NCBI RefSeq assembly: GCF_000024405.1
Contig: NC_013517.1
Location: forward strand, 2,821,989 to 2,885,988
Direction: 5' to 3'
DNA length: 64,000 nt
DNA from: Sebaldella termitidis ATCC 33386
Lineage (GTDB): Bacteria; Fusobacteriota; Fusobacteriia; Fusobacteriales; Leptotrichiaceae
The translations under genes were made by a program, and so were the position numbers. The notes beneath the pieces were generated by a model. The model was not told the DNA's origin. It ran no database searches and saw only the letters and a program-made list of their open reading frames with translations. This document shows, piece after piece, positions 15,787 to 17,137 of the stretch (position 1 is the stretch's first letter; each line of letters begins with the position of its first letter).

Positions 15787-16842
15787 TTATCCCTCTCTTA
15801 TCATATTAAGAAAATCATCAAAAATATATGCAGTTTCTTCCGGACCCGGAGAAGCTTCCGGGTGAAACTGTACTGTATACACCTTCAGCTCCTTATTTTT
15901 CATTCCCTCAATGGAATTATCATTTAGATTCACATGACTAAGCACTGTTCCTTCCGGAAGCTCGGTTACTTTATAGCCGTGATTCTGTGAGCTTATATAT
16001 ATTTTATTTTTTTCTATGTCTTTTACCGGATGGTTTCCTCCCCTGTGCCCGAATCTCATTTTTGCTGTTTTTCCGCCCATTGCCAGTGCTGCTATCTGAT
16101 GTCCCAGACATATTCCTATTACAGGTTTTTTTCCTATTACTTTTTTTACCAGTTCTATTGCTTCCGGAAGATCTTCCGGATCTCCGGGACCGTTTGAAAG
16201 AAACAATGCGTCCGGATTATACTCCATGATTGTTTCATAGTCAGTATATGCAGGAAATACTCTTATATCACAGTTTCTCTTTGCGAAAGATTCTATTATG
16301 TGTTTTTTTATTCCAAAATCTATTATTGCTATTTTTTCTTTACTGCCCTCTATTTTAAGTATATCTTTTCTTGTAACCTGCTTTACGGCATCAGAATTTG
16401 AGAATGAAAAAAATATATTCCCGAGTTCTTCCTGTGACAAATCTCTGGTAGTAATAACTGCTTTTTTTGTCCCAGTATCCCTTATTATCCTTGTTAGGTG
16501 TCTTGTATCTATATTTTTTAGTCCCATTACTTTATTTTGCTTTAAATATGCCTCAAGCGTTATCTCACACCTGAAATTATTCGGGAGTTTTGCATCCTCT
16601 TTTATAATAAACCCTTTTACCCTTACCCTGTCAGACTGCATGTCCTCCAGATTAATTCCATAGTTTCCTATAAGCGGATAAGTCATAACCACTATCTGCC
16701 CGTGATAAGACGGATCTGTAAGTACTTCCTGATATCCTGTCATAACTGTGGTAAATACAAGTTCACCCACTGTTTCTTCCAGATAACCGAAAGCTTCACC
16801 GTGAAAAATCATGCCGTTTTCTAAAATCAGTTTTGCTTTCAT
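15787..16842 (-). CDS. carA: Carbamoyl phosphate synthase small subunit
   Basis: Glutamine amidotransferase chain that hydrolyses glutamine and channels ammonia to CarB. The N-terminal CPSase_sm domain begins AKLILENGMIFHGEAFGY. The class I glutaminase domain has the nucleophile elbow GICLGHQ and the His/Glu pair in VQFHPEASPGP. The ATG at 16842 follows GGAGG by 4 bases and gives 351 residues. The frame is open 20 codons further up, but that stretch lies in the attenuator and is not expected to be translated. First structural gene of the pyr operon. Confidence 0.96.
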   Translation of the reverse strand: MKAKLILENGMIFHGEAFGYLEETVGELVFTTVMTGYQEVLTDPSYHGQIVVMTYPLIGNYGINLEDMQSDRVRVKGFIIKEDAKLPNNFRCEITLEAYLKQNKVMGLKNIDTRHLTRIIRDTGTKKAVITTRDLSQEELGNIFFSFSNSDAVKQVTRKDILKIEGSKEKIAIIDFGIKKHIIESFAKRNCDIRVFPAYTDYETIMEYNPDALFLSNGPGDPEDLPEAIELVKKVIGKKPVIGICLGHQIAALAMGGKTAKMRFGHRGGNHPVKDIEKNKIYISSQNHGYKVTELPEGTVLSHVNLNDNSIEGMKNKELKVYTVQFHPEASPGPEETAYIFDDFLNMIREG

Positions 16843-16866
16843 AATTCCTCCTAAAATGTATATCAT

Positions 16867-16907
16867 AAAAAAAGAATAATAATTATTAACTAAAATAACC
16901 ATTATTC
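16867..16907 (-). terminator. Attenuator-like terminator in the pyr operon leader
   Basis: On the minus strand GAATAATGGTTATT pairs with AATAATTATTATTC across a 6-base loop. The stem has 14 pairs, two of them G-U pairs that only exist in minus-strand RNA, and T7 (16867-16873) follows directly. It lies 25 bases before the carA start, between promoter and first structural gene, so it would stop transcription before the operon. The stem is AU-rich with one G-C pair, so its strength is uncertain. The leader-peptide stop codon (16886-16888) lies at the loop/3'-arm junction. Confidence 0.65.
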
Positions 16908-17068
16908 CTATTATGTTTATTATTTAAAAATATAAAGTAAGTATAAATATTAAAATATTTTATAATCTTAGTAATTAAGAGTACAAATAAGTAAGTAAAA
17001 TAATCAGAACTTTTAAAAATATCTTTTAACTTTTCAACAATTTTTTCTTTTAATATGTTTAGTTCCAT
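16886..17068 (-). CDS. Putative pyr operon leader peptide (60 residues)
   Basis: A 60-codon frame begins at ATG 17068, 34 bases after the predicted transcription start and 11 bases after GGAG. It ends inside the attenuator. Residues 22-59 are rich in Tyr and Phe (YFTYLFVLL, then KYFNIYTYFIF). A U5 run (16926-16930) lies 19 bases before the attenuator stem. In E. coli the pyrBI leader peptide couples translation to transcription: when UTP is low, polymerase pauses at U-runs, the ribosome catches up and blocks the terminator. The layout here would allow the same mechanism. The sequence shares no recognisable similarity with PyrL, and the function is inferred from position. Alternatively it could be a small membrane protein, since residues 24-48 are hydrophobic. 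Confidence 0.55.
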   Translation of the reverse strand: MELNILKEKIVEKLKDIFKSSDYFTYLFVLLITKIIKYFNIYTYFIFLNNKHNRNNGYFS

Positions 17069-17108
17069 TTCCCGACTTACTCCTCTCTTTATTTTAAACA
17101 TTTCTATT

Positions 17109-17137
17109 AGTTTAACAAATATAAAGAAGCAAGTCAA
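17109..17137 (-). promoter_or_regulatory. Promoter of the pyr operon
   Basis: On the minus strand TTGACT (17132-17137) is followed after 17 bases by TAAACT (17109-17114), with an upstream TG making an extended -10 (TTTGTTAAACT). Predicted start near 17102. The same extended -10 occurs before the potD-like gene at 54341-54346. Confidence 0.75.

What the first reader, a model, noticed from the sequence alone, without database searches (positions are those of the whole stretch)
16867..17137. Leader-peptide attenuator controlling a fusobacterial pyr operon
Four elements line up: a good promoter (17109-17137), a 60-codon aromatic-rich frame (17068-16886) with its own SD, a U5 run 19 bases before the stem, and a 14-pair hairpin plus T7 that abuts carA. 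The leader frame's stop lies in the hairpin loop, so a ribosome reaching it would cover the 5' arm and prevent termination. That is the logic of E. coli pyrBI attenuation (known), where low UTP slows polymerase. I see no PyrR binding loop. To my knowledge such control has not been described in Fusobacteriota. The stem is AU-rich and may be weak.
Basis: partly seen in the sequence, partly recalled or inferred. Interest (0 to 1): 0.82.

Follow-up and report, generated by a model that had tools for sequence, protein, structure and literature searches.

The report
Fusobacterial pyrBI-type pyrimidine operon attenuator
A short, uridine-rich reading frame that runs into a transcription stop signal sits in front of the pyrimidine-making genes of this bacterium and of most of its phylum, and it very probably lets the cell switch those genes on when UTP runs low, the way E. 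coli controls its pyrBI genes.

Summary
Window 17137-16842 (-) holds a promoter, an SD-led 60-codon U-rich frame, an intrinsic terminator (dG -15.8 for the region, z -4.1) with T7, then the carA SD. It heads a complete UMP operon: carA carB pyrB pyrI pyrK pyrD pyrF pyrC, probably pyrE.

The same architecture lies before 58 pyrimidine-type carA genes (54 genomes, 14 genera, two families) and before 26 pyrB genes. Peptides and stems diverge, but the frame always reaches the hairpin: 54 of 54 non-redundant leaders, against 0.84 expected from shuffles. The stop never lies more than 10 nt before the stem. U is about 57% in the 50 nt before the stem at carA; 48 of 54 leaders have U5+ near it. No antiterminator is detectable. 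PyrR was found in one of 60 genomes, which also has the PyrR RNA. Arginine-type carA and upp genes lack the device.

Best explanation: pyrBI-type UTP-sensing attenuation by transcription-translation coupling. UTP dependence is inferred, not shown. The mechanism is known. What appears new is its phylum-wide use in Fusobacteriota, its place before carA, and its occurrence at two pyr loci. I found no earlier report in the open-access literature searched.

The parts
17109..17137 (-). promoter, TTGACT-17-TAAACT
   Evidence: the -35/-10 pattern is kept in G003 (TTGACT..TAGACT) and G002
17075..17085 (-). Shine-Dalgarno region of the leader frame (AGAGAGGAG)
   Evidence: sequence; conserved in G001 and G003
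16886..17068 (-). leader frame, 60 codons plus stop; proposed to couple a ribosome to the polymerase
   Evidence: 54 of 54 non-redundant homologous leaders keep such a frame
16910..16959 (-). U-rich stretch before the stem (50% U; U5 at 16930-16926), proposed UTP-sensitive pausing zone
   Evidence: pausing itself inferred
16872..16909 (-). intrinsic terminator hairpin; leader stop codon at 16888-16886 lies at the loop
16867..16873 (-). terminator T7 tract
16843..16866 (-). spacer with the carA Shine-Dalgarno sequence
15787..16842 (-). carA, carbamoyl-phosphate synthase small subunit
   Evidence: TIGR01368
12499..15747 (-). carB, carbamoyl-phosphate synthase large subunit
   Evidence: TIGR01369
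11499..12434 (-). pyrB, aspartate carbamoyltransferase catalytic subunit
   Evidence: TIGR00670
11042..11491 (-). pyrI, aspartate carbamoyltransferase regulatory subunit
   Evidence: TIGR00240
10204..11019 (-). pyrK, dihydroorotate dehydrogenase electron transfer subunit
   Evidence: NF000798
9213..10181 (-). pyrD, dihydroorotate dehydrogenase
   Evidence: NF005574
8489..9196 (-). pyrF, OMP decarboxylase
   Evidence: NF001273
7204..8460 (-). pyrC, dihydroorotase
   Evidence: TIGR00857
6588..7214 (-). 208-codon frame, probably pyrE by position and size
   Evidence: not searched against a family library

Best explanation
This is a pyrBI-type, UTP-sensing transcription attenuator. RNA polymerase starts about 235 nt before the end of the T7 tract and transcribes a U-rich leader frame. 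With ample UTP it outruns the first ribosome, the AU hairpin folds, and transcription ends at T7, before carA. With low UTP the polymerase slows in the U-rich stretch, the ribosome on the leader frame catches up and reaches the stop at the hairpin loop, its footprint blocks the hairpin, and the polymerase reads into the carAB-pyr operon. Shown: the anatomy, its conservation, the restriction to de novo pyrimidine genes among the loci checked, and no detectable antiterminator, PyrR gene or PyrR RNA. Inferred: that UTP is the signal, that pausing happens in the U-rich stretch, and that leader translation prevents termination.
For: Hairpin z -4.1. Terminator plus entering frame before 58 type-A carA genes in 54 genomes and before 26 pyrB genes. 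Frame found in 54 of 54 non-redundant leaders against 0.84 expected in dinucleotide shuffles; other frames are mostly closed (0 and 2 of 36). Substitutions by codon position 3/1/2 are 83/51/43 and both indels seen are multiples of three. Stops lie no earlier than 10 nt before the stem; PMC4824070 measured that a stop 5 bp before a terminator cut termination from about 90% to under 10%, and that full termination needs more than 27 nt. U is 56-57% at each 10-nt step of the last 50 nt before carA stems, against a mean of 33% at 39 terminator-like sites in the window. In the last 51 nt the wobble position is 63% U to 27% A; U- against A-ending codons are 236:196 in leaders and 1297:1916 in carA. 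No antiterminator: upstream pairing of the 5' arm 0.466 against 0.459 in shuffles, while the terminator pairs at 0.94. Stems vary (32 distinct 5' arms among 36) with paired changes. PyrR over cut-off only in G045, which also has the PyrR RNA. Arginine-type carA (beside an argJ-like gene in L083) and upp have no such device. E. coli pyrL has the same layout.
Against: No transcript, translation or UTP data were available. The leader of G004 (L006) is not U-rich, and two type-A carA genes of genus g18 and that of G034 lack the device. The densest 12-nt U window is no denser than in shuffled leaders (9.5 against 9.6), so U enrichment is regional rather than one sharp pause run. Sequences are phylogenetically related, so the P values overstate independence.
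Confidence: 0.85

Rival explanations
1. Coupling attenuator that senses translation rate or charged tRNA (Phe, Leu, Ile) rather than UTP: a slow ribosome lets the terminator form.
For: Leaders are rich in Phe (18%), Ile and Leu (13% each). The geometry would also respond to slow ribosomes.
Against: U is preferred at synonymous wobble positions, which amino-acid sensing does not need. No antiterminator. The leader of G004 has no Phe. The regulated genes make pyrimidines, not these amino acids.
Confidence: 0.07
2. The frame encodes a functional small membrane protein, and the terminator merely ends its transcript.
For: Hydrophobic composition; some purifying selection (codon position 3/1/2 substitutions 83/51/43).
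Against: The peptide diverges between genera beyond recognition and its length runs from 31 to 71 codons, while the stop stays tied to the hairpin. It occurs only at pyr operons in the loci checked.
Confidence: 0.04
3. PyrR-type RNA-binding attenuation or an unrecognised riboswitch.
For: PyrR attenuation is the usual pyr control in many other bacteria (own knowledge); G045 of the same order has it.
Against: No Rfam match in the window. No PyrR over cut-off in 59 of 60 genomes. The only shared structure is the terminator, and its sequence is not conserved.
Confidence: 0.02

Closest known systems
E. coli pyrBI attenuator with the pyrL leader peptide
   Same: SD-led short frame (44 codons in E. 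coli), U-rich run before the stem, intrinsic terminator with a long T tract, frame reaching or passing through the terminator just before a de novo pyrimidine gene, pyrI in the operon. In several loci (L017-L019, L023, L067, L071, L072, L064) the frame even passes through the terminator and ends at or near carA, as in pyrL.
   Different: Different phylum; no sequence similarity seen; stems almost purely A-U in the window; usual stop inside the hairpin rather than beyond it; placed before carA of a whole-pathway operon, and at two separate loci in several genomes. E. coli carAB is instead controlled at its promoters, with UTP-dependent reiterative transcription at P1 (PMC6245113).
PyrR-dependent pyr attenuation (RF00515)
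   Same: Controls the same genes by premature termination.
   Different: Needs the PyrR protein and its RNA loop; both were found together only in G045.
Amino-acid leader-peptide attenuators (trp, his, phe types)
   Same: Leader peptide and intrinsic terminator.
   Different: Those use a competing antiterminator, which is not detectable here.

Membership tests
pyrBI-type UTP-sensing attenuator | short leader frame with its own SD before a de novo pyrimidine gene | tested here: met
pyrBI-type UTP-sensing attenuator | frame reaches or enters an intrinsic terminator, so a ribosome would cover the hairpin | tested here: met
   stop no earlier than 7 nt (carA) or 10 nt (pyrB) before the stem; threshold from PMC4824070
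pyrBI-type UTP-sensing attenuator | U-rich run upstream of the terminator | tested here: met
   U5+ in 48 of 54 leaders within 70 nt of the stem, A5+ in 19; exception L006
pyrBI-type UTP-sensing attenuator | no competing antiterminator structure | tested here: met
pyrBI-type UTP-sensing attenuator | UTP-dependent polymerase pausing in the leader | not testable with these tools
   needs in vitro transcription
pyrBI-type UTP-sensing attenuator | expression depends on leader translation and falls with uracil | not testable with these tools
   needs reporter or RNA-seq experiments
PyrR attenuation | PyrR RNA element in the leader | tested here: not met
   no Rfam match in the window; none in the own genome
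PyrR attenuation | pyrR gene in the genome | tested here: not met
   over cut-off only in G045 of 60 genomes
amino-acid leader attenuator | antiterminator competing with the terminator | tested here: not met
amino-acid leader attenuator | run of codons for the operon's amino-acid end product | tested here: not met
   the operon makes UMP; residues are mixed F/I/L/K/N

The most novel reading that the evidence does not exclude
Fusobacteriota use a dedicated regulon of pyrBI-type UTP attenuators as their main pyrimidine control, at carA and at pyrB, replaced by PyrR in one lineage. This would be an independent origin or transfer of the enteric mechanism in a distant phylum, with the whole UMP pathway under a single coupling-based sensor.
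Probability: 0.7. Interest if true: 0.7.

Novelty: new member of a known kind. Interest (0 to 1): 0.6.

Why it matters
It would extend UTP-sensing, ribosome-coupled attenuation, best known from E. coli pyrBI, to a distant phylum, and make it a phylum-wide regulon rather than a single-operon oddity. It also implies that transcription and translation are closely coupled in Fusobacteriota, which can be tested, and it offers a natural set of dozens of divergent attenuators for working out what the mechanism needs.

Tried and rejected
PyrR control: rejected. The weak RF00515 match in G055 (38.8 bits, L103) lies beside a GntR-like regulator and transporter-like genes, not pyr genes (identities read from the translations, not searched). 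Antiterminator or riboswitch: no signal. Dense local U-run as a sharper signature: no excess over shuffles, so only regional U-richness is claimed. Same device at upp and uracil/xanthine permease genes: none at upp, and one chance-like hit (L175) among the permease loci. Literature: no paper found on such control in Fusobacteria (titles, abstracts and term passages only; all ten searches used); subscription journals and supplementary tables were not available.

Full report
What is there. On the minus strand of the window, 17137-16842, a promoter (TTGACT-17-TAAACT) is followed by an SD-led frame of 60 codons (17068-16886), a U-rich stretch, an intrinsic terminator (16909-16872, T7 at 16873-16867), an SD and carA. 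The 81-nt region folds at -15.8 kcal/mol against a shuffle mean of -7.54 (z -4.1, none of 200 as good). The operon is carA carB pyrB pyrI pyrK pyrD pyrF pyrC and then a frame that is probably pyrE (by position only). The window lies in a 4.49-Mb genome. Its genus is inferred as Sebaldella because G003, of the same genus, has the same carA upstream sequence as the named record JAGOZX010000047.1, Sebaldella sp..

Conservation at carA. I took the region upstream of carA from Fusobacteriota genomes (98 genomes of the phylum searched). Two kinds of carA exist. Type A, related to the window's, has a strong hairpin with T6-T10 in 58 cases from 54 genomes and 14 genera of two families. One of these families is Fusobacteriaceae, because L070 (G085) carries the same leader as the named record L034, an uncultured Fusobacteriaceae bacterium. 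In all 58 an SD-led frame of 31-71 codons reaches the hairpin; L064 was added by hand after the script missed it. In most the stop lies between 7 nt before the stem and the inside of the hairpin. In a group of related genomes (L017-L019, L023, L067, L071, L072) the frame passes through the terminator and stops 12-13 nt before carA, and in L064 it overlaps the carA start. Type A genes without the device are L026 and L065 (both genus g18) and L031. Type B carA, 43-48% identical to the window's over the full length and beside an argJ-like gene in L083 (identity read from the translation, not searched), has no leader of this kind in any locus examined, including genomes that carry both types.

Conservation at pyrB. 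In many genomes pyrB is elsewhere. Of the 50 pyrB loci examined, 26 have the same architecture directly before pyrB, and in L113 a frame without a good SD also ends in the hairpin (read by eye). In G002 a leader nearly identical to the window's lies 73 nt before pyrB, with no carAB between. upp loci had none and permease loci one chance-like case. The genus g3 genomes (probably Leptotrichia; name not verified) lack the device at pyrB, apart from one hairpin in L115 whose frame is not U-rich.

Is it more than chance? Taking 36 carA and 18 pyrB leaders that are less than 85% alike within each set, all 54 have an SD-led frame of at least 25 codons entering the stem; shuffling the leader with dinucleotides kept gives 0.84 expected. 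The chosen frame is open where the other two are mostly closed (0 and 2 of 36). Between 15 close pairs, substitutions fall 83/51/43 on codon positions 3/1/2 and both indels are multiples of three. Related sequences inflate these figures, but the peptides and the stems are so diverged (32 distinct 5' arms among 36) that conservation of the layout is not simply unchanged inherited sequence.

How it probably works. Three results separate the mechanisms. First, the only structure shared is the terminator: the 5' arm pairs upstream no more than in shuffles (0.466 against 0.459) and the terminator dominates (0.94), so there is no sign of an antiterminator. Second, PyrR was over the curated cut-off in one of 60 genomes, G045, and that genome carries the PyrR RNA just upstream. 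Third, U rises to 56-57% at each 10-nt step over the last 50 nt before the stem at carA and to about 45-63% at pyrB, against a mean of 33% at 39 terminator-like sites in the window. At wobble positions it is 63% U to 27% A, and U- against A-ending codons are 236:196 in leaders and 1297:1916 in carA, so U itself, not only Phe, seems selected. These are the parts of the E. coli pyrBI attenuator, whose leader frame, U run and terminator I read in the same way. Published measurements agree with the geometry: a stop 5 bp before a terminator lowered termination from about 90% to under 10%, and full termination needs more than 27 nt (PMC4824070); tight coupling over pyrL prevents the terminator (PMC5021804). 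That UTP is the signal, that the polymerase slows in the U-rich stretch, and that translation is needed are inferences.

What does not fit. G004's leader (L006) is short and A-rich with no Phe. The densest U window is no denser than in shuffles, so one sharp pause site is not shown.

Novelty. The mechanism is known. I found no report of it in Fusobacteria in the open-access papers searched. One survey of premature terminators names no Fusobacteria and no pyrB in its main text (PMC2965389), and the F. nucleatum transcriptome paper does not mention carA, pyrB or attenuation in its main text (PMC11005410). Subscription papers and supplements were out of reach. I file it as a new member of a known kind.

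Noticed in passing
L125 2410-2690 (-), genome G002: A leader nearly identical to the window's sits 73 nt before pyrB, and the sequence between matches the carB-pyrB spacer of the window in part, as if carAB had been removed cleanly; no carA was found in this genome (86% complete).
   Followed up: partly
L009/L076 (G053), L010/L077 (G041), L061/L075 (G073), L022/L073 (G039): Four genomes have two carA genes of the attenuated kind, each with its own leader and terminator.
   Followed up: no
L084 3318-3428 (-), genome G045: The only genome of 60 with PyrR over cut-off also has a PyrR RNA element (51.5 bits, just under the gathering score) before pyrR; an apparent switch of control system within the family.
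   Followed up: partly
L106, L108-L110, L112, L114, L118, L120, L121, L123, L124, L126: Genus g3 genomes have no attenuator of this kind before pyrB or carA and no PyrR over cut-off; their pyrimidine control is unknown.
   Followed up: no
L017-L019, L023, L067, L071, L072: The leader frame has no stop before the terminator, so a terminated leader RNA would be a non-stop message, as with E. coli pyrL.
   Followed up: no
L053-L059, L063: Leaders of genus g27 seem to start with TTG rather than ATG; one other leader (L066) starts with GTG.
   Followed up: no
L004: In G001 about 100 nt are inserted between the terminator and carA (T tract 132 nt before carA).
   Followed up: no
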